A DNA stretch of 14,437 bases from Globomyces pollinis-pini (lineage: Eukaryota; Chytridiomycota; Chytridiomycetes; Rhizophydiales; Globomycetaceae), in contig MU621385.1 of the NCBI GenBank assembly GCA_025399215.1, positions 1 through 14,437 on the forward strand, read 5' to 3'. Every line of letters begins with the position of its first letter. The first letter of the stretch is position 1. The notes under the pieces are model-generated. The model worked only from the letters and a program-made list of their open reading frames with translations, was not told where the DNA came from and made no database searches. Shown here one piece after another: positions 1 through 14,437 of this stretch. Position numbers and translations under genes: made by a program.

Positions 1-354
1 ATGAAGTCTACTATGCCAACATCTGATACAATGGCATCAGGAAGTACAACTGCATCATCGTTGTACAAATACACTCCTGGATCCTATCTACTCTCCGAAT
101 TGAATTTACCATCAGCAGTTCGATATGATATTTTCGAAACTGAATTCAAAAACGCTTATGGAGCGGATGATCGTTTTAACTCTGCTGCTTTCAAAAATAT
201 GGTGAAACCGACAGCAAATAAAGTGACTGCTAAAGGGTTGAGTTTGGGTTTGTTGAAGGATTTGGATGCCTTGACACATGAAGCAGATGAAGAAAGTTGG
301 ATTGAAGAATTCCATATCCTGTTGGAAGACATTTTACATAGTGTCTCTAAATAA
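1..354 (+). CDS. Hypothetical protein, 117 aa, possibly only the 3' part of a gene
   Basis: An open frame runs from the first base of the window to a TAA at 352-354. I do not recognise the product. The first 25 residues are rich in Ser, Thr and Met and look disordered. The rest looks like a compact, mainly helical domain: an aromatic/acidic stretch around residues 43-60 and a C-terminal amphipathic segment with WIEEFHILLEDIL at about 100-112. No signal peptide or membrane segment is visible. The ATG sits exactly at the window edge, so the true start cannot be judged; upstream exons behind micro-introns are possible. An AATAAA lies 15 nt after the stop, supporting a real 3' end. The gene converges on the PPR gene, leaving 95 nt between the stop codons. 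Confidence 0.6.
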   Translation: MKSTMPTSDTMASGSTTASSLYKYTPGSYLLSELNLPSAVRYDIFETEFKNAYGADDRFNSAAFKNMVKPTANKVTAKGLSLGLLKDLDALTHEADEESWIEEFHILLEDILHSVSK

Positions 355-449: not shown

Positions 450-2915
450 TTAATTACGATTATTTTTGTATCCATTCTTCAATATTTTAAATGTTTCCAC
501 ATTGGATTTCACATTTTCATTCATCATCGTTTCATATACACTCTCCATTTCAGGAATCAATCCTGCTCGACCAAAAGCATTCATCATGATGTTATAATGG
601 ACCACGGTAATCGGAATATCATGACTTTTCATTTGACTTTCCAATAATTTCATTTTCTCTAATTCACCTTTTAGACCATAAGAGTATAACATTGAGGTAT
701 ATGTTAAGGTATCAATTTCGATATTCTTTGATCGCATTTTTTCAACAATGTATTCCATTTGAGTGAAATTCGATGTCATTCGATATGAGTGTAGTAATGA
801 TAGATACGTTATTTTATCTGCTTCCACTTCATATTTGAACATTTGAGTAAAAGTTTGTTCCATTCGCTCTATTGCATTGGTTCGTCCAAAATAACTGATC
901 AGCAAATTATATAAATCTAAGTTTAAACGGGATGAAAGCCCATCTAATTCTGCTATCAATTCTTTGAGAAGAGTGTATGAATTTCTGGTTTCATAAATAT
1001 TGAATAAATAGATGTATGTGTCTAGGTTCGGCAATATGTTCAAACTATCAAACTCTTCAAGAGTATCTTTAGCTAGACCATCTAATCCTGCAGATGCATA
1101 TCCGTATATCAAGCCATTCAGTGTATTTACTGATAAATTTTCATTGTTAAGTTTGATACTTTGATAAATCTTTTCCATGTCAACAATTCGATTATTCATT
1201 GCATGCTCCAATAGTCTTTGGTCATCTTTGGTTCCTTTAGTTCGCTGCTCTGAATTGTCTAAACGTGGAGAGTATATTTCTTTTAGTGTTCTAATGTTTG
1301 GAGCTATATTGAATTCACACATCATGCTCCAATATTCTTCCAATTTTGAAATTGATGTTGTTCCAGAAAAAGAAGAAAATATGGTATTGAAGGTTTCGAC
1401 GTTTGGAATAATCAACTTGGATTTCATTTGCTTAAAAGCGTCTTCTAATCCCTTGTGGTGATTTGATTGAGCATACGACTGAAGCAAACAGTTCCACACT
1501 TTTACATCGGTATATTTCAGTTTATCTGCTTCTCGGAAGACTCTTTCAACTTCCATCATATTCCCCAACTGACTTAATAAAGATATTCTCGTTGCAATCC
1601 AAGATGGAGACACAGTAACCTTAGATCCTTTCAGTTTGAGAAACAGTTGCTCTAAAATATCGATCCTTCCCAAGATTCCTGCATGTACGCAAACATGGTT
1701 ACAAAGTATTTCATCCAATTCAATATTAGAATCAAATAAATCATTTATAACTCTATTCCAGTCATCCAATCGTCGAAAGTCCCAATATGTATTCAGTACA
1801 ATATCGTACGTAAACCTACAATATGGAACTTTATTAATTTTCATCAAACCAAGGGTATCTTCAAACAAATCAATCCGATTGAATTTTTTGAATGATTTGA
1901 TCATGATATGATAAACTTGAGAATCTGGTACAATATTGAATCTTTCGAAGCGATTGAACGTCTGTTCCATTTCAATTAATCTACCACATGAGCCATAATA
2001 TTCAAGAATAGTAGATAATAGATATACATCAGGAGTACGTCCACTCTGAATGATTTGATCCACCATTAATTCCATTTTCGAAAATTCTTTTCGATCACCA
2101 TATACATGAATTAAATTTGTATATGTTTCAATAGTTGGTTCAAGATTTAACTCTTTAATTGACTCTAATGCCGACTGCAACTCTGTCATCTTTCCCGCTT
2201 TCCCATAATAATAAATAATAGAATTAACAATTTGAATGTCAAAATTGATTCTGTGTCGTTTCATCTCTGCCAATAACAACTCTACCAGTATGTATTTACT
2301 TGCATCAGCGTATGCAAGTATCATCCAAGAGAACCCGGAATGACTTGGCAAAAATCGTTTTTCTCTCATCTTGGTATATAATTCGTTCATTTGAGTGAGT
2401 AAACCATTTCGTGCATAAGCTTCCAACATCTTATTAAAAATAGAACTGGTGACAGATAATCTGTTATGGTTAATTAATAGATAGAATAGATCCATTTGTT
2501 GTATATTGTTCACCTGAGCAGCACAATTGATTAAACAAGTGTAAATCACAAGTGTTGGAGTTAGACCAAGCTGACGAAGACAGTTCCACACGTGTATACA
2601 ATCGTCCCATTTAGATTTATTGGAAAGAGATATGAGTAGCAATTCAATAGTGACAAGAAGAGGAACAGTTTTAGTTGTCATCATTTGATTCAGTAATTGA
2701 AGGCATTTTTGTTCATCATCATCCAAAAGAGACTTCGCGACTATTTGATGGTATTGAAGAGGGTTTAAAGAATTGCTGGTTGAAATAGATTCTTGGGTAT
2801 TTTGTTCACCAGGAAGTACAGTAGAGACATACCTCACTGTCCTAAAACAGCAATGACTGGACCAAAGATAGGGCCGGTAAACAGTGAGCATTTTCACTGG
2901 TATTCTTCGGATCAT
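450..2915 (-). CDS. Pentatricopeptide repeat (PPR) protein, probably mitochondrial
   Basis: An intronless 821-aa protein. The open frame continues 49 codons further upstream (to 3062), but that extension is hydrophobic, low-complexity and ends in a pyrimidine-rich stretch. The ATG at 2915-2913 instead gives a good mitochondrial presequence: the first 36 residues carry Arg/Lys at 3, 4, 8, 14, 25 and 28 and no acidic residue until Glu37. From about residue 80 to the C-terminus the protein is a run of roughly twenty degenerate 35-residue helical hairpins of PPR type, for example 'TYTNLIHVYGDRKEFSKME' and 'NIMMNAFGRAGLIPEMESV'. PPR proteins bind organellar RNA sequence-specifically and act in processing, stability or translation; the target cannot be read from the sequence. 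It lies downstream of the coiled-coil gene on the same strand, about 235 nt from that gene's stop, and is probably separately transcribed. The family assignment is secure; the individual orthologue is not. Confidence 0.93.
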   Translation of the reverse strand: MIRRIPVKMLTVYRPYLWSSHCCFRTVRYVSTVLPGEQNTQESISTSNSLNPLQYHQIVAKSLLDDDEQKCLQLLNQMMTTKTVPLLVTIELLLISLSNKSKWDDCIHVWNCLRQLGLTPTLVIYTCLINCAAQVNNIQQMDLFYLLINHNRLSVTSSIFNKMLEAYARNGLLTQMNELYTKMREKRFLPSHSGFSWMILAYADASKYILVELLLAEMKRHRINFDIQIVNSIIYYYGKAGKMTELQSALESIKELNLEPTIETYTNLIHVYGDRKEFSKMELMVDQIIQSGRTPDVYLLSTILEYYGSCGRLIEMEQTFNRFERFNIVPDSQVYHIMIKSFKKFNRIDLFEDTLGLMKINKVPYCRFTYDIVLNTYWDFRRLDDWNRVINDLFDSNIELDEILCNHVCVHAGILGRIDILEQLFLKLKGSKVTVSPSWIATRISLLSQLGNMMEVERVFREADKLKYTDVKVWNCLLQSYAQSNHHKGLEDAFKQMKSKLIIPNVETFNTIFSSFSGTTSISKLEEYWSMMCEFNIAPNIRTLKEIYSPRLDNSEQRTKGTKDDQRLLEHAMNNRIVDMEKIYQSIKLNNENLSVNTLNGLIYGYASAGLDGLAKDTLEEFDSLNILPNLDTYIYLFNIYETRNSYTLLKELIAELDGLSSRLNLDLYNLLISYFGRTNAIERMEQTFTQMFKYEVEADKITYLSLLHSYRMTSNFTQMEYIVEKMRSKNIEIDTLTYTSMLYSYGLKGELEKMKLLESQMKSHDIPITVVHYNIMMNAFGRAGLIPEMESVYETMMNENVKSNVETFKILKNGYKNNRN

Positions 2916-3149
2916 TTCTATCTCTGTTACTGAAAAATAATTGAATTCAAGAGTCAATAAAAAAAAATGAAAAGTCACTTCAAGTTGACTGTAAAGAAAA
3001 CAAAACCAAATAAATGATTCTAATCCCAGTTTATCTGTTAAAAATATTTGGACGAGAGTCATTGCAAGACGTAATCTACACTGTTTAGCACATTAAATAA
3101 TCTATTTATAATATTATATTTACAATCTATGGTATCATTGCAGAAAATC

Positions 3150-5645: not shown

Positions 5646-8185
5646 CTATTGCATTGATGCAACAACCAAAGATTCATTTTTAACGCTGTTGGTTTGATAA
5701 GTCCAAGGTTCAAAATACTTTGTCCATAAACTCATTTCTTCTGCAGTTTTGAATTCAATCCAATATGAGGTATGTTCTACTGAAAATCGCAGAATGAGAG
5801 GATCCGTTGGTTTCATTGCAAAGTCTTTAATTTTGGTTACTTGCCAAATAACTCCTACTCCCAAATCTGCAGTAGCAGTGGATTCTAAAGACACTCGTTT
5901 GACGTCAAATATTCCGATAGATTGAGGTGTAATTTCACAAAGTATGACATTGCGTGTATATTTCAAGCCAAATCTACTAACAGTTGTCAATAGTGCTTCA
6001 CATCTCGTTCGTCCTGTCTTATTATGAGTCGCAGTATTCGAAGTGTTCGAATTTGCACCAGTTTTACTACCGTTGCTGTTTATGGATCCATTTTTTCCAG
6101 TGTCAGAAATTGAAACGAATATTTTGTACAGGAAATTGCTTGAAACATTGAATAGCAAAATGTAAATAATGGCAGTTGATTTGATAATATACTTTGCTTG
6201 AAATCCTAAACTGTCGGAGCTGAGCACTACAATGGTGAATAGAGAAATAACAGTCATATTATAGACAGATGAAGCAATTACTTTCGTTTCACTGTAGGTT
6301 GACACAACATTACGAGTCATAAATGCCATTACCAAGTTAGCCAATAAGACCAGTGTGTTGATTGCAATATGAAAAGCGATTGCAGTGGATTCCAGCCCAT
6401 TAGTGCTTTTACAAGTCCAATAGTATTGTGTAATAGACACTTTCACAATTGTAGGCACAGGCGGATCAGCAATAACCCAAACCATTGAGACAATAACAGA
6501 TGGGAGAGCAATTAGCAAACCATTAAAGTAAATAAAAGTATCCGATAATTGGAACCGGTTGGGCGGTTTATAGAAAATACGATAGATTCGAAGATTCTTG
6601 GCAAACAGTAATCCATAGTAAAATGAGAATAAGACAGGAATGACAAAGGCATCGATGGAACACTTGGATACAGTTGGTTTATCAATCATGATTAAGAATT
6701 GAATGTTTAGAAGTAATAGACATAGCTGCATCCCAAATCCTATTATGACTCCTGACTTCTTAATCGCACCGACTCTTCGATATTTTAGGACCCCAAGAAC
6801 AGACACTAGAGTAAAAATAGTTCCAATAATCGCCAAAACAATTGAGAGAACTGCCAAACCGGTTCCAGGGACGGCGTACAAAGCAACATCGTTTGGGTCA
6901 ATTCCATCTTTGGGTTGTAATTGAGAACCACCAGGATAAATAATTGGAGTATTTGGATTCAAAACCTTCCTGCCACCAGTCCAACCTCCAACTAGTTGCC
7001 GAGATCCATCTGCAAGAAGGTTGTAAATATCGAAATCACCCAATCGATCACCATTTTTGTCAGTTCGAACATATCCACTTGGAGTTGCAACTTCGGGAAA
7101 CACGAACGAGTCAGGTACTTTCATAAGCTTGTTCAAGCTTCCCGAAATTAAGTCATCAATAGTGAAAGAAGTATTGGATTTTAACAAAGCATCAAATCCA
7201 TGAAGAAACAAATCAACACAGCTGGGGAAAAAGTAAACATAGGATTTTGTAGCTTCTGGTGCTGTCATTGAAATGTTTGGAAATCCTGATATTTCTCGAT
7301 TAGCTTTCCAGTAGTCAGCAAAAGGTATTGCTTCTGGCCCCGAAGCTTCAACAGGGTAGAACACCAAGAAACCATTGTAAATACTTCCATCATTTGGATA
7401 TGCAGCAGCGAAATCAAACAGAGAATCAGCACCAAACCATACAAAATCTTTTCCATAAATTCCTAGCTGTTTGGCTAGTTTCAAAACAACTAACAACTCT
7501 TCATTATACCCAAAAAAGAATATGATTCGAGCACCAGATTCTTGAACAGTTTGTACAGCTGGTTTTGCCTCCACATCACTAACACCAATCTTTACGTTTA
7601 CTTTTGCTAGCACTTCAACGGAATTATCACGTGCAAGATTGGTGAGATAGTTAGCCAATCCACCACCATAGTCTTCGTTAGTATGAATAATTGCAATCTT
7701 TTTCCACCCTGACGCGACCACATAACCCATCATAGCTGCAGTTTGAGATGCATCGGTTGGAATAACGCGAAAGAAGTTTGGATATTGCTTCTTGTCTGAC
7801 AAACAGGATTGGTTGATGCACCACAACATTGTGGGATCTTATAGTTTTGTAAAACCAGAGATGTTAACATCGATAACGAGCTAAACCCAGATCCAACAAC
7901 AGCCAAAACCCCTTGCTTTTGCAGTTCAAGAGAATTGATAATGGTCACATCTCTCGTAACTCTATGGTTCAAGAAAACTGGCTCCAAGGCAACATCATCT
8001 CCAAGTAAAGGCGAATTTTCATTTAATTGCTTGATTCGTAGAAAGGTTGCTTGAGCACCATCCAAAACATTACTTCCTTCGGGAGGAAATCCTAAGCTGA
8101 TACCAATCTTGATTTTCTTGGTCCCAGTTGTGCTAAGCCCAGAGCATAATAGAACCAAGGAAAGAAATTGAATCCAGCAGTTCAT
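5646..8185 (-). CDS. Class C (GABA-B-like) G-protein-coupled receptor, frame broken near 7801
   Basis: Two overlapping frames form one receptor of about 846 aa. The first (from ATG 8185) has a signal peptide (residues 1-19) and the start of a type I periplasmic-binding (ANF receptor) domain: 'KIKIGISLGFPPEG', 'AVVGSGFSSLS', 'CCGASTNPV' up to about residue 128. The second resumes with 'LSDKKQYPNFFRVIPTDAS' and carries the rest of that domain to about residue 290 of the 727-codon frame. Seven membrane segments follow, at about 324-347, 358-381, 391-412, 431-452, 482-505, 520-540 and 547-571. Cys390 and Cys473 suit the conserved TM3-ECL2 disulfide, and 'KNLRIYRIF' ends TM3 as in class C receptors. 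A Ser/Asn/Gly linker (575-605) leads to a ~100-residue cytoplasmic domain ending 'SLWTKYFEPW', which looks PH-like (inference). The frames fit if one base is added to the T run at 7801-7803. Family knowledge: ligand binding in the Venus flytrap signals through heterotrimeric G proteins; the ligand is unknown. Confidence 0.9.
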
Positions 8186-10800: not shown

Positions 10801-10806
10801 TTTATT
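10801..10806 (-). terminator. AATAAA overlapping the stop codon of secreted protein A
   Basis: The minus strand reads TAATAAATAAG at the end of the gene. The AATAAA shares two bases with the stop codon TAA (10807-10805), so the 3' UTR must be only a few tens of bases. Confidence 0.5.
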
Positions 10807-11398
10807 AAAGAGTGAATCGATAGTTTTGACCATAAAGAGAATCCCAATCACCTTTATCATTCACAAATGCAATCTCAACATTCCAATCATAATTTCCTGC
10901 ATTAGTGATGAGAGCTTTTTCGTTCGCGAATCCAGGTGCATAAAACCAGCCGACATAACCTGGTGATGGTCCCTCTTGTAAAGGAAACTGTTCAGTGACT
11001 GGGCAACGAGGAAAGCCATACATAGTGAAATCTGGGGCATCAGTTTTGGTTGCATGATAACACATGTGAACGTTGGCAGGAGCACCAACAGCATAGTAAG
11101 CATAGTTGATTGCGTCACCTGCATTTTGTGATGATCCAGTAAAATGTTTGGTAGTAATGTCTTTACCATTTACTTTCACATAAGCAGACAATGGACTTGC
11201 TTTAGGCCATAAACTACCAGAGTCCTTGTATTTGATGTACAATCGAGGATGGTTGTAGCCTTTATTCCAAGCACAAGCAGTCACTGGTCCAACATCTTTA
11301 CAATTTTGAATGGCGACATAGTCAGGTGGATAGTTTGAACGTTTGTCAACAGGAGTGGAATTAACGAGAGCCAATAAGGAAACAAAAATAGAGAGCAT
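10805..11398 (-). CDS. Small secreted four-cysteine protein A, 197 aa (tandem paralogue)
   Basis: A single-exon gene. Residues 1-15 form a signal peptide (hydrophobic 'IFVSLLALV'), followed by a possible Kex2-type 'DKR' site at 18-20. The mature part has four cysteines (33, 42, 113, 132), conserved in the neighbouring paralogue and likely forming two disulfides. Further shared motifs are 'GPVTAC', 'SPLSAYVKVN' and 'DWNVEIAF'. The C-terminal 'KGDWDSLYGQNY' recalls the W-D-x-x-x-G-x-N-Y last strand of starch-binding CBM21/CBM25-like beta-sandwich domains. That resemblance is an inference from the motif only. It is probably a secreted or wall-associated beta-rich protein, conceivably carbohydrate-binding. 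TATAAAT starts 33 nt before the ATG, which implies a very short leader. It converges with the 143-aa orphan and shares strand with paralogue B. Confidence 0.85.
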   Translation of the reverse strand: MLSIFVSLLALVNSTPVDKRSNYPPDYVAIQNCKDVGPVTACAWNKGYNHPRLYIKYKDSGSLWPKASPLSAYVKVNGKDITTKHFTGSSQNAGDAINYAYYAVGAPANVHMCYHATKTDAPDFTMYGFPRCPVTEQFPLQEGPSPGYVGWFYAPGFANEKALITNAGNYDWNVEIAFVNDKGDWDSLYGQNYRFTL

Positions 11399-11901: not shown

Positions 11902-12507
11902 TTAAAGTTTTATTTGGTAATTGCTTCCTCCGATTGAGTCCCAATCGCCTTTGTCGTTGAAAAATGCCAGTTCAACGTTCCAATCCTTCTTACCAGCTTG
12001 GGCTATCAATTCTTTCTCCGCATTTGGTGCAGGTGTGTAGAACCAGCTAATAATTCCAGCCTTAGCAGGTCCGTCAATAAGGGGGAACAAATCATTCACT
12101 GAACATCGGCTAAATCCATCTGGGCTGTAGTCCACAGGATCGTGGGTGGTAGGATGGTAACAGCGCTGAACGTCAGAAAATGCTCCCACCACATAGAACG
12201 CATAAGTATTGTCAGCGATTGTTTGATTTGTTGACCCAATAAAGTTTTTGGTGACAATAAACTCTTGATTGATCTTCACATATGCAGAAATCGGGCTACC
12301 TTTTGCCCATAATGCACCAGTGTTATCGTAAGCCAAGTATAAACGAGTATTGGCAACATTTTTGTTCCAGATGCAAGCAGTGACTGGTCCAATGACATCA
12401 CAAGTTTGAGTTTCCACATGGTCAGGGGAGATATCAATATCCTTCTCCATGGGTGTTGCTTTAACCAAAGCAACCAAGGATAATAGTATTGGTAAAATGA
12501 ATAACAT
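11902..12507 (-). CDS. Small secreted four-cysteine protein B, 201 aa (tandem paralogue)
   Basis: A single-exon gene with a signal peptide (residues 1-17, 'LFILPILLSLVALV'). It aligns along its whole length with protein A and is clearly paralogous, though well diverged. Shared features are cysteines 36, 45, 116 and 135, 'GPVTAC', 'SPISAYVKIN', 'DWNVELAFFNDKGDWDS' and a closing 'NY'. One N-glycosylation sequon (Asn94-Gln-Thr) is seen here and not in A. The dibasic site of A is absent. As with A, the C-terminal W-D...N-Y motif suggests a carbohydrate-binding-like beta-sandwich, without proof. A TATAAAT box starts 39 nt before the ATG, and an inverted CCAAT (12598-12604) lies further upstream. 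An AATAAA lies inside the last codons of the coding region. The head-to-tail arrangement with A indicates local duplication followed by divergence. Confidence 0.85.
   Translation of the reverse strand: MLFILPILLSLVALVKATPMEKDIDISPDHVETQTCDVIGPVTACIWNKNVANTRLYLAYDNTGALWAKGSPISAYVKINQEFIVTKNFIGSTNQTIADNTYAFYVVGAFSDVQRCYHPTTHDPVDYSPDGFSRCSVNDLFPLIDGPAKAGIISWFYTPAPNAEKELIAQAGKKDWNVELAFFNDKGDWDSIGGSNYQIKL
11909..11914 (-). terminator. AATAAA inside the last codons of secreted protein B
   Basis: The AATAAA falls within the codons for the C-terminal Gln-Ile-Lys, a few bases before the stop (11904-11902). If used, cleavage would come just after the stop codon, parallel to the overlap in paralogue A. 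Confidence 0.4.
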
Positions 12508-12546: not shown

Positions 12547-12980
12547 GCCAGATCCCTGTTTCTGTTTAATGAAATCGGATGCGTGCCGTTTCCATTTGGC
12601 CAATCAATGAATATTAGTCAAGCGTTATTTCAAAGTCTTTTCATTTATACTGACACCCTATGTTTACAAATGACTTAGTCCACTTGTTTACACAATTGGA
12701 TGGAAAGATTCGACTTCACCTGTGACCAAGTCTCGTATTCTTTTATTGATCTAATTTCAAATTAAATCAATTTGATTCTAAGTAATTGGAGAAATTTAAT
12801 TAAAGTCTCGGATCTCAGACTTGTGATGGTACAAAGTTCTGATGAAATGTAGGCAACTACAACCTTATTAGGTTTCAAACTGTAAAGGGAAATAACTGAA
12901 GGTTCCGTGTGTGATTGAATCTCAAGATAAGTTTATACATTTCAAGTTGCTTATCTCAGCCCAAACGGAGTGAATTCCTT

Positions 12981-13076
12981 ATGGTTTACTTTTCAGGCGC
13001 AGTTGTGATAGTAGACAAAAGTATTGAATTGAAGAACATTAAAGCTCTTTATCGTATAATTAAATGTAAAAGCTAG
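12981..13076 (+). repeat. Upstream copy of a diverged direct duplication
   Basis: Starts 'atggtttacttttcaggcgc' and matches 13285-13375 with substitutions and small gaps. Shared blocks include 'agttgtg', 'agtattg' and 'aagaacat'. Confidence 0.7.
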
Positions 13077-13190: not shown

Positions 13191-13284
13191 ACGTATCATG
13201 ATAAAATTGGTAACTTGTATGTTTTATTATAAAATTATGCGAGTGTAGAATAGTATAATGGCTAATTAAGTATTATTAGTAGTT

Positions 13285-13375
13285 ATGGTTTACTTTTCAG
13301 GCACAGTTGTGTAGTAGAAAGTATTGCATTTAAGAACATCAAAGTTCTTAAATGTATATTTAAAAGTAATGAGTC
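13285..13375 (+). repeat. Downstream copy of the diverged direct duplication
   Basis: Starts 'atggtttacttttcaggcac', about 300 nt after the first copy. A small deletion brings a stop ten codons in, so the frame open in copy one is closed here. It contains a 7-bp inverted repeat (13331-13337 with 13344-13350). Confidence 0.7.
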
Positions 13376-13495: not shown

Positions 13496-14437
13496 ATGAA
13501 AACAGCACACTTGATTGTGGGTATCAGCTTTCTCTATGGACGAATCAATGCCTTGGGTCAATGTGAATCATTTTGTAAATTTTACAGTGGTTTGAAAGCT
13601 ATTGGAGGAGTATGTAGTGACCTAGTTGGGACACCAGATGAATCTGCTTTGACCAACTGTTGCAATTTTCCTGGTGTTAAATGTGATTCCTCTAAGCCGA
13701 ATCCTACTATAACTAATATGTAAGACATACGACACGCTAAAATCCAGTGTTTTATCTCAAGATTTGACTGGGACTATAACAAACCATGTGTCTAGCTTAA
13801 CATCTTTACAGCTCCTGTAAATACTTCTTTCTTTTAATAATTTAGTGATTTGAGTCACAATGCTCTTTCAGGAGAATTGCCAGACTTCCGTATGTTGATT
13901 AACTTAGAAAACCTGTAACTAATGTCAGATCTAACAAATGCCTAGATATTTGTACGAGAATCAATTCACTGGTCCAATTAATAGTGCCATATTTCCAGTT
14001 TCGCTGGTAGAACTGTATGTTAAATTATTTATACTGATTACTTTCAGTGACCTATATAACAATCTTCTTTCGGGTGAATTACCACAAGATTTCAGTACAT
14101 TGATACACTTACAATACCTGTAATTAAATTTCTCTTACATTCTAGTAACTTGGGACGAAATCAATTCTCTGGGCGAATCAATAATATTCTCTTTCCTACT
14201 TCAATAGAGTATCTGTAAGGATGATTCAAATTTTCATAACATTAGCACTTTGAGCAGCAATACTCTGTCAGGTGAGTTGCCTCAGGATTTTAGTATATTA
14301 AGTAATCTAAAAAAACTGTAATTGATGATATATCTTAACATTAGTGCTCTATCTGGGAACAATTTTTCCGGTGCTGTCGATGATATCGTATTTCCAACAA
14401 ACATTGAGCGACTGTAAGTTTATGAACATTCACTATT
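13496..14437 (+). CDS. Secreted/surface plant-type LRR protein, 5' part, one LRR per exon
   Basis: Starts at ATG 13496 (the first ATG of the frame) and runs off the window. Exons: 13496-13719, 13748-13816, 13846-13914, 13946-14014, 14048-14119, 14146-14214, 14246-14317, 14345-14413. Complete introns are 28, 29, 31, 33, 26, 31 and 27 nt; an eighth opens at 14414. All introns are phase 2 and, after the first, split the same Leu codon. Exon 1 encodes a signal peptide (1-20) and a cysteine-rich cap (Cys 23, 27, 40, 55, 56, 63; 'NCCNFPGVKC') like the N-terminal cap of plant-type LRR proteins. Every later exon is 69 or 72 nt and encodes one 23/24-residue repeat, L-x-x-N-x-(L/F)-(S/T)-G-x-(L/I). Such LRRs form a curved binding surface. 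Any C-terminal membrane segment or kinase lies outside the window. Confidence 0.9.

What the first reader, a model, noticed from the sequence alone, without database searches (positions are those of the whole stretch)
13720..14437. LRR gene with exactly one repeat per exon and a micro-intron at every repeat boundary
Seven consecutive internal exons are 69 or 72 nt (69, 69, 69, 72, 69, 72, 69). They are separated by 26-33 nt introns, all phase 2, and the later junctions all split the same leucine codon as CT|N. Exon equals repeat equals structural unit. One-LRR-per-exon genes exist elsewhere, but with introns shorter than half the exon this is an unusually compact modular array. It looks suited to repeat gain and loss by unequal recombination, and possibly to diversification by exon skipping that keeps the frame.
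Basis: partly seen in the sequence, partly recalled or inferred. Interest (0 to 1): 0.85.

Follow-up and report, generated by a model that had tools for sequence, protein, structure and literature searches.

The report
Chytrid LRR genes, one repeat per-exon
In the chytrid fungus Globomyces, genes for long, probably cell-surface proteins made of leucine-rich repeats carry mostly one repeat per tiny exon, cut by introns of about 29 letters at the same point of the repeat, an arrangement known from plants and brown algae.

Summary
From ATG 13496, eight exons (224, 69, 69, 69, 72, 69, 72, 69 nt) are separated by seven introns of 26-33 nt, all phase 2; six of seven junctions split CT|N. The gene runs off the contig end. 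A paralogue matches a deposited Globomyces pollinis-pini protein.

It is a family trait: at one setting, 145 of 146 predicted introns in ten genes are phase 2. Introns of other genes nearby are as short but mixed in phase (8 of 26 phase 2), so compactness is not special; phase and position are. In a paralogue's AlphaFold model 26 of 27 introns cut at the centre of a beta-strand. In the clearest array the copied unit is two exons with their introns.

One LRR per exon with phase-2 introns is known from rice LRR kinases (same Leu, same phase), brown algae, Tetrahymena (90-bp exons) and animal hormone receptors. This is a fungal micro-intron variant. Exon skipping is untested; all splicing is predicted. 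One related gene joins LRRs to a kinase domain, a type a 2010 survey found lacking in fungi.

The parts
13496..13719 (+). exon 1: start codon, hydrophobic N-terminus (signal-peptide-like, by eye), Cys-rich N-terminal cap
   Evidence: 65% identical over residues 1-66 in paralogue C410
13720..13747 (+). intron 1, 28 nt, phase 2 (AT|T)
13748..13816 (+). exon 2, 69 nt, first LRR-like unit
13817..13845 (+). intron 2, 29 nt, phase 2 (CT|T)
13846..13914 (+). exon 3, 69 nt, LRR of type A by motif (LSGELP)
13915..13945 (+). intron 3, 31 nt, phase 2 (CT|A)
13946..14014 (+). exon 4, 69 nt, LRR of type B by motif (FPVS)
14015..14047 (+). intron 4, 33 nt, phase 2; multiple of three without a stop, the only such intron here
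14048..14119 (+). exon 5, 72 nt, LRR of type A
14120..14145 (+). intron 5, 26 nt, phase 2
14146..14214 (+). exon 6, 69 nt, LRR of type B
14215..14245 (+). intron 6, 31 nt, phase 2
14246..14317 (+). exon 7, 72 nt, LRR of type A
14318..14344 (+). intron 7, 27 nt, phase 2
14345..14413 (+). exon 8, 69 nt, LRR of type B (not typed); donor GTAAGT follows, the gene continues beyond the contig end
14414..14437 (+). start of intron 8, cut by the contig end

Best explanation
This is the 5' part of a gene for a secreted, probably membrane-anchored leucine-rich-repeat protein of the chytrid Globomyces pollinis-pini. The family is built from an exon module: typically one LRR, bordered on both sides by a phase-2 intron that splits the first Leu codon of LxLxxN, i.e. 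cuts each turn of the solenoid in the middle of its beta-strand. Because the modules are 2-2 in phase and multiples of three, copying or losing modules at the DNA level keeps the frame and adds or removes whole turns. Such copying (inferred: unequal crossing over or slippage) made arrays of different length in paralogues; in the C254 array the copied unit was two exons with their two introns. The introns are short because introns are short in this genome. The protein most likely works as a long curved binding surface outside the cell (adhesion or ligand recognition); that last step is inference from domain architecture.
For: Structure of the window gene and chance control. Paralogues C254 (28 exons at four of five settings) and C410 (46 to 50 at four of five) with nearly every intron in phase 2; C254 fits the deposited protein P0001 residue by residue with 28 exons. 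At one setting (penalty -4, first codon table) ten genes on nine contigs give 146 introns, 145 in phase 2; with the codon table from frames without LRR motifs, penalty -4 gives 130 of 130 and -3 one exception in C410. Control introns in other genes of the same stretches: 8 of 26 phase 2; Fisher p = 1e-17 against the 129 of 129 (copies within an array are not independent events, so the p value overstates). In the C12 gene the 7 LRR-part introns are phase 2 and the two kinase-part introns phases 0 and 1. 26 of 27 C254 introns fall on the central residue of a beta-strand where 21% of residues are in strands (model). The base before the intron is T in 127 of 129 array introns but 5 of 26 control introns, which fits copying of one module better than many separate insertions at ordinary sites. 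Repeat types A and B alternate: 16 alternating versus 1 equal typed neighbour pair in P0001, 14 versus 0 in P0003, 0 of 10000 shuffles each; C254 introns resemble each other by type of neighbouring exon (3/5000 and 7/5000 permutations). Fold: the 50 listed Foldseek matches are plant LRR receptor chains.
Against: No transcript evidence: all exon models are computed, and how the deposited protein was derived I did not see. At strict settings the window chain stops early, and with the LRR-free codon table at -6 the C254 and C410 chains fail too. Lighter settings give a few introns of other phases in C410 (1 to 4) and one in C254. Intron resemblance by type is not significant in the window gene alone (6 of 7 exons typed); a simple lag-identity test showed only weak differences in C254 and none in C410, and I made no A/B test in C410. 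Other loci do not keep one repeat per exon throughout: exons of 141-147 and 219 nt hold two or three LRRs. Membrane anchoring is read by eye from the C-termini of paralogues; the window gene lacks that part.
Confidence: 0.82

Rival explanations
1. Independent insertion: introns were gained many times at the same point of pre-existing LRRs (a favoured insertion site), rather than being copied along with the exons.
For: Other LRR genes of this genome lie in long uninterrupted frames (C146, C183, C117, C213, C188; open frames of about 300-590 aa), and some array genes have exons with two or three repeats, so introns can be absent at single borders.
Against: The exonic context is atypical for this genome (T before the intron in 127 of 129; of 26 controls 19 have A or G). 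C254 introns resemble one another according to exon type, as expected if exon and intron were copied together.
Confidence: 0.12
2. A diversity generator: the symmetric exons are alternatively skipped in frame to make many isoforms of the surface protein, as reported for brown algal LRR exons.
For: All inner exons of the seven modelled loci are multiples of three and 2-2 in phase. The Globomyces sp. JEL0801 model P0002 is shorter than P0001 by 23 and 24 residues at places that can be read as exons 21 and 25; the residues I and F there are those that joining exons 20-22 and 24-26 would give.
Against: The same absences fit genomic loss or a missed exon in annotation; MAFFT places the first gap a few residues away from the exon border, and P0002 differs at other splice borders in ways that look like model noise. 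117 of 129 introns carry an in-frame stop if retained, so faithful removal matters. No transcripts were available.
Confidence: 0.12
3. Chance or misreading: not introns but an intronless coding repeat, or a pseudogene.
For: No transcript was seen, and strict model settings do not carry the window chain through.
Against: Unspliced reading meets stops at six of seven introns; 0 of 200 shuffles reach the score; the paralogue fits a deposited protein.
Confidence: 0.02

Closest known systems
Plant LRR receptor kinases, as described for rice (PMC3050792; passages and section 6 read)
   Same: Introns that usually split the codon of the first Leu of xxLxLxx in phase 2; most short LRR exons are 72 nt with one LRR, others 162, 144, 81, 78, 75, 69, 66 nt; similar LRR consensus and fold.
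   Different: More than half of the rice genes have one or two exons and the most complex has 27; here arrays reach 46-50 predicted exons with introns of about 29 nt, in a fungus; the window gene shows no kinase (truncated).
Brown algal LRR-ROCO genes (PMC11378527; passages read)
   Same: One LRR per exon, 72-bp exons, phase 2; exon shuffling and alternative splicing reported there.
   Different: No ROC-COR domain among the Pfam matches of P0001, P0003 or the window protein; their exon is said to contain the whole LxLxxNxL segment, so the cut appears to lie elsewhere in the repeat; exon lengths here vary.
Tetrahymena 90-bp LRR exon arrays (PMC6564038; passages read)
   Same: Tandem LRR exons of fixed size with extreme phase-2 bias, attributed there to exon shuffling with unequal crossing over.
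   Different: 90 bp not 69/72; tens of thousands of such exons; intron lengths there about 50 (oldest) to peaks near 122 and 257 bp.
Gonadotropin receptors of animals (as described in PMC11378527, passage read)
   Same: LRR exons of similar size, all introns phase 2.
   Different: Receptors with seven transmembrane helices and long introns (recalled).
GP46-like surface antigens of kinetoplastids (one Bodo saltans protein is in the list)
   Same: LRR surface proteins with a C-terminal anchor signal (recalled).
   Different: That hit covers 25% of the query, 31% identity; kinetoplastid genes mostly lack introns (recalled).

Membership tests
Leucine-rich repeat proteins | Tandem LRR motifs over the curated cut-off | tested here: met
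   LRR_1 61 bits, LRR_4 55.4, LRR_8 43.4, LRR_6 27.2, all above cut-off, on the spliced window protein
Exon-module (one LRR per exon) genes | Exon borders coincide with repeat borders in one phase | tested here: met
   7 of 7 introns in the window; 145 of 146 phase 2 in ten genes at one setting
Plant-type LRR exon module | Phase-2 intron in the first Leu codon of xxLxLxx | tested here: met
   Split residue L 83, I 30, F 7, V 5, M 2, P 1, E 1 of 129; definition from PMC3050792
Plant LRR receptor kinase family | Transmembrane helix and kinase domain after the LRRs | tested here: not met
   No kinase match in the two paralogues scanned that have the C-terminus (P0001, P0003). The window gene is cut off before that part and cannot be tested. 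A separate gene, C12, has LRRs, a hydrophobic helix (by eye) and a kinase domain
Brown algal LRR-ROCO | ROC-COR domains | tested here: not met
   No such Pfam match in P0001, P0003 or the truncated window protein
Tetrahymena 90-bp LRR exon genes | Exons of exactly 90 bp | tested here: not met
   Inner exons mostly 69 and 72 nt; one of 90 nt
GPI-anchored surface proteins | C-terminal hydrophobic signal with cleavage site | tested here: inconclusive
   P0001-P0003 end in a shared hydrophobic stretch, read by eye; no predictor was run; window gene truncated
Alternatively spliced LRR exon arrays | Transcripts that omit whole exons | not testable with these tools
   No transcript data

The most novel reading that the evidence does not exclude
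The LRR exon module with its phase-2 intron at the first Leu of LxLxxN is one inherited element shared by plants and chytrids (by descent or transfer), still being copied in a fungal genome, where it serves both anchored surface proteins and an LRR-transmembrane-kinase receptor, i.e. an early-branching fungus carries a plant-like modular receptor system.
Probability: 0.2. Interest if true: 0.8.

Novelty: new variant of a known kind. Interest (0 to 1): 0.52.

Why it matters
It gives a compact natural case (about 100 bp per exon-intron unit, 18.5-Mb genome) in which growth of a repeat protein by exon copying can be read directly, including the size of the copied unit. The intron position equals that described for rice LRR kinases, which makes it possible to ask whether that exon module is older than plants or was reached twice. 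And the same genome holds an LRR-kinase gene of the same make-up, whereas a survey of 101 eukaryotes reported no LRR receptor kinases in fungi (PMC2939053, passages read).

Tried and rejected
Lag analysis by percent identity was too blunt to show the two-exon period; replaced by typing exons by motif and by permutation (one C254 exon and one window exon stayed untyped and were dropped). A first motif count failed through a wrong pattern and was redone (untyped repeats, 6 of 25 in P0001, 5 of 22 in P0003, count in no pair). Intron search up to 120 nt joined neighbouring genes and crashed; redone with limits of 60 and 100 and a heavier penalty. P0003 as the continuation of the window gene: considered, not testable; it gave no near-identical match in G000 (best 69%; 49 of 80 candidates scored). 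The 129 introns mix settings (C254 threaded to P0001, C410 at -5, window and C396 at -4, C12, C33, C194 at -3.5) and include one probably false intron inside the N-terminal cap of C410 (absent at -6); hence the uniform recount and the second codon table. Of the 41 introns, 7 belong to the C12 array and were dropped from the control, as were those outside 22-40 nt, leaving 26. Selection for early stops by GTAA donors: 89 of 129 array introns versus 13 of 26 controls begin GTAA; too few controls to claim. Eukaryotic rRNA search: machine busy, not answered, dropped; the organism came.

Full report
What is there. The + strand gene at the right end of the window starts at ATG 13496. Splicing seven introns gives eight exons of 224, 69, 69, 69, 72, 69, 72 and 69 nt; introns are 28, 29, 31, 33, 26, 31 and 27 nt, all GT-AG and phase 2; junctions 2-7 split CT|N and junction 1 AT|T. 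The 237 complete residues match four LRR models above their cut-offs. The window is the whole contig C296 of an 18.55-Mb, 459-contig assembly, so the gene is cut by the contig end after its eighth exon.

Is it more than chance. I used a Viterbi gene model that scores codon use and splice signals; repeat length, place and phase are not in it. Its first codon table came from long frames of this genome, several of them in LRR genes. It recovers the eight window exons at intron penalties -4, -3 and -2 and stops after three exons at -5 and -6. With a second table from 21 of 23 frames (two with LRR-like motifs left out) the window is recovered in full at -3, in part at -4, and not at -5 or -6. In 200 dinucleotide shuffles of 13496-14437 no chain reached the observed score and none had more than one intron; the reverse strand gives a single 105-nt exon.

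Organism and family. A search with the spliced paralogue from contig C254 returned a deposited protein of Globomyces pollinis-pini (BC833DRAFT_623593, P0001; its contig length of 24,010 is that of C254), a Globomyces sp. JEL0801 relative (P0002, 89% identity) and a second, partial G. pollinis-pini protein (P0003, 55%) (120 of 5173 hits listed). P0001 can be threaded through C254 exactly with 28 exons and 27 phase-2 introns of 23-39 nt. A search with the C-terminal 424 residues of the C410 protein gave 644 hits; of the 120 listed only these three Globomyces proteins cover the whole region. The N-terminal cap of P0001 finds 2 proteins, both Globomyces. Within that database and its length limits the family is so far a Globomyces one.

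Extent in the genome. C410 has 46, 48, 49, 50 and 54 exons at penalties -6 to -2; its introns are all phase 2 at -6 and -5 (45 and 47) and 1, 2 and 4 depart at -4, -3 and -2. C254 has 28 exons and 27 phase-2 introns at -6 to -3, and 30 exons with one other phase at -2. C396 has 27 of 27 introns in phase 2 (its 5' end was not fetched); its C-terminal exons 273, 105, 72, 72 resemble 258, 105, 72, 72 in C254 and 255, 105, 72, 72 in C410. At penalty -4 throughout, the window (7), C410 (48), C254 (27), C396 (27), C12 (7), C194 (7), C33 (7), C177 (10) and two genes on C14 (2 and 4) give 146 introns, 145 in phase 2. With the second codon table at -4 the same ten genes give 130 introns, all phase 2. 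A first count over seven loci, with mixed settings, is 129 of 129, median 29 nt, range 23-39, and is the base of the length, residue and context figures below; one of its C410 introns is probably false. There the inner exons are 72 nt (55), 69 nt (32) and fewer of other sizes, all multiples of three. C177 and C14 have exons that hold two or three repeats. Other LRR genes (such as C146, C183, C213) lie in long open frames. The list of loci is a lower bound: the genome search scores only its best candidates, and I fetched only part of them.

Control. In non-array genes of the same stretches predicted introns also peak at 25-34 nt: 29 of 41 with a limit of 60 nt, 7 of these from the C12 array; with a limit of 100 nt, 29 of 55, the rest spread thinly up to the limit, which I take for false joins. 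Longer true introns are not excluded. The 26 control introns of 22-40 nt have phases 0:13, 1:5, 2:8; against 129 of 129 the Fisher p is 1e-17, an overstatement since copies are not independent. Thus short introns belong to the genome, and phase and place belong to the LRR arrays. In the C12 gene the LRR part has seven phase-2 introns and the kinase part one each of phase 0 and 1.

Where the introns cut. The split residue is Leu in 83, Ile in 30, Phe 7, Val 5, Met 2, Pro 1, Glu 1 of 129: the first Leu position of LxLxxN. The AlphaFold model of P0001 (three-sequence alignment; mean pLDDT 55.7, mostly 75-95 in residues 101-410 and 511-640, low elsewhere) puts 26 of 27 split residues at the central residue of a three-residue strand, where 21% of residues 78-840 are in strands. 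Some of these strands lie in low-confidence parts. One exon therefore supplies the second half of one strand, the loop and convex side, and the first half of the next strand. Foldseek's 50 listed solved matches are plant LRR receptor chains, led by GASSHO1, BRL2, FLS2, MIK2 and BRI1.

How the array grew. Repeats in C254 and P0003 are of two kinds, A (24 residues, LSGELPxDxSxLxxL) and B (23 residues, FTGxIxxIxFPxSL), that alternate: typed neighbour pairs A-B versus equal are 16 to 1 in P0001, 14 to 2 in P0002, 14 to 0 in P0003 (0 of 10000 shuffles reach each), 4 to 0 in the window (74 of 10000). In C254 introns are more alike when they flank the same kind of exon (3/5000 before, 7/5000 after) and differ in length by kind (Mann-Whitney p 0.026 and 0.004); in the window alone, with six typed exons, this is not significant. 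A plain lag comparison gave only a slight excess at lag 2 in C254 and none in C410. So in the C254 array exon and intron were copied together, two exons at a time. The exonic base before the intron is T in 127 of 129 array introns but in 5 of 26 controls, of which 19 have A or G; this argues against repeated insertion at ordinary splice contexts. The copying mechanism (unequal crossing over or slippage) is inferred.

Stability and skipping. The first 13 typed repeats of P0001 and P0002 are in the same order; the later part differs. P0002 is shorter by 23 and 24 residues at places that can be read as exons 21 and 25; its residues I and F there are those that joining exons 20-22 and 24-26 would give, though MAFFT sets the first gap a few residues off the exon border. 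P0002 differs also at a few other borders in a way that suggests model noise. Exon loss, skipping and annotation error cannot be told apart without DNA or cDNA. If retained, 117 of 129 introns bring an in-frame stop, in 91 as the first codon after the split one.

What the protein may do. The window gene shows a hydrophobic start, a Cys-rich cap and LRRs. Full paralogues add a second cysteine-rich and LRR part, a Ser/Asn/Gly-rich stretch and a hydrophobic tail, read by eye as a membrane-anchor signal. I take them as anchored surface proteins that bind a ligand or a surface; this is inference.

Known relatives. Rice LRR kinases have introns that usually split the first Leu of xxLxLxx in phase 2, with mostly 72-nt one-repeat exons among the short ones (PMC3050792): same place, same phase. 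Brown algal ROCO genes have 72-bp one-LRR exons in phase 2 with alternative splicing (PMC11378527). Tetrahymena has 90-bp LRR exon arrays with phase-2 introns (PMC6564038). I found no account of such genes in fungi in ten searches of an open-licence library, read mostly as listings; the nine papers naming G. pollinis-pini were seen as a listing only. That does not show that none exists.

A side result. The C12 gene encodes LRRs, a hydrophobic helix (by eye) and a kinase domain (Pkinase E = 1.6e-23; exon model). By eye its HRD and DFG motifs are changed (HLN, DFK), so it may be catalytically dead; no signal peptide was seen upstream of its start. A survey of 101 eukaryotes reported LRR receptor kinases absent from fungi, while naming LRR-kinase proteins without a membrane helix in Batrachochytrium (PMC2939053). 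The C-terminal domain of the C12 protein recurs in the window's own left-end frame 1-354 (36% identity).

Noticed in passing
window 1-354 (+, open at the left end): Similar to the C-terminal domain of the LRR-kinase protein of contig C12 (36% identity over 90 columns, E = 2e-20), so perhaps the 3' end of a receptor-kinase-like gene; no Pfam match.
   Followed up: partly
L031/L049 (G000:C12, minus strand, about 127426-124597): LRR + hydrophobic helix + kinase domain (Pkinase E = 1.6e-23) with HLN in place of HRD and DFK in place of DFG (by eye): a possible LRR receptor pseudokinase in a fungus; LRR introns phase 2, kinase introns phases 0 and 1.
   Followed up: partly
window 10805-11398 and 11902-12507 (-): Tandem pair of small secreted-looking proteins, 50% identical, without Pfam match; the second has no convincing solved relative (best E = 0.48).
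   Followed up: partly
window 12979-13069 and 13283-13369: Duplicated segments about 300 bp apart (97% over 29 nt, 80% over 59 nt) upstream of the LRR gene.
   Followed up: no
window 5646-8185 (-): Class C GPCR: 7tm_3 plus ANF_receptor in frame 5646-7829, with a second overlapping frame 7730-8185, so probably one gene with an intron.
   Followed up: no
window 450-3062 (-): Long PPR protein in one open frame (PPR_2 E = 2.2e-50).
   Followed up: no
L046 (G000:C177:4200-6700): LRR gene in which a cap-plus-LRR block (a large exon followed by shorter ones of 144 and 69 nt) appears to recur, all predicted introns phase 2: perhaps a second level of block duplication.
   Followed up: no
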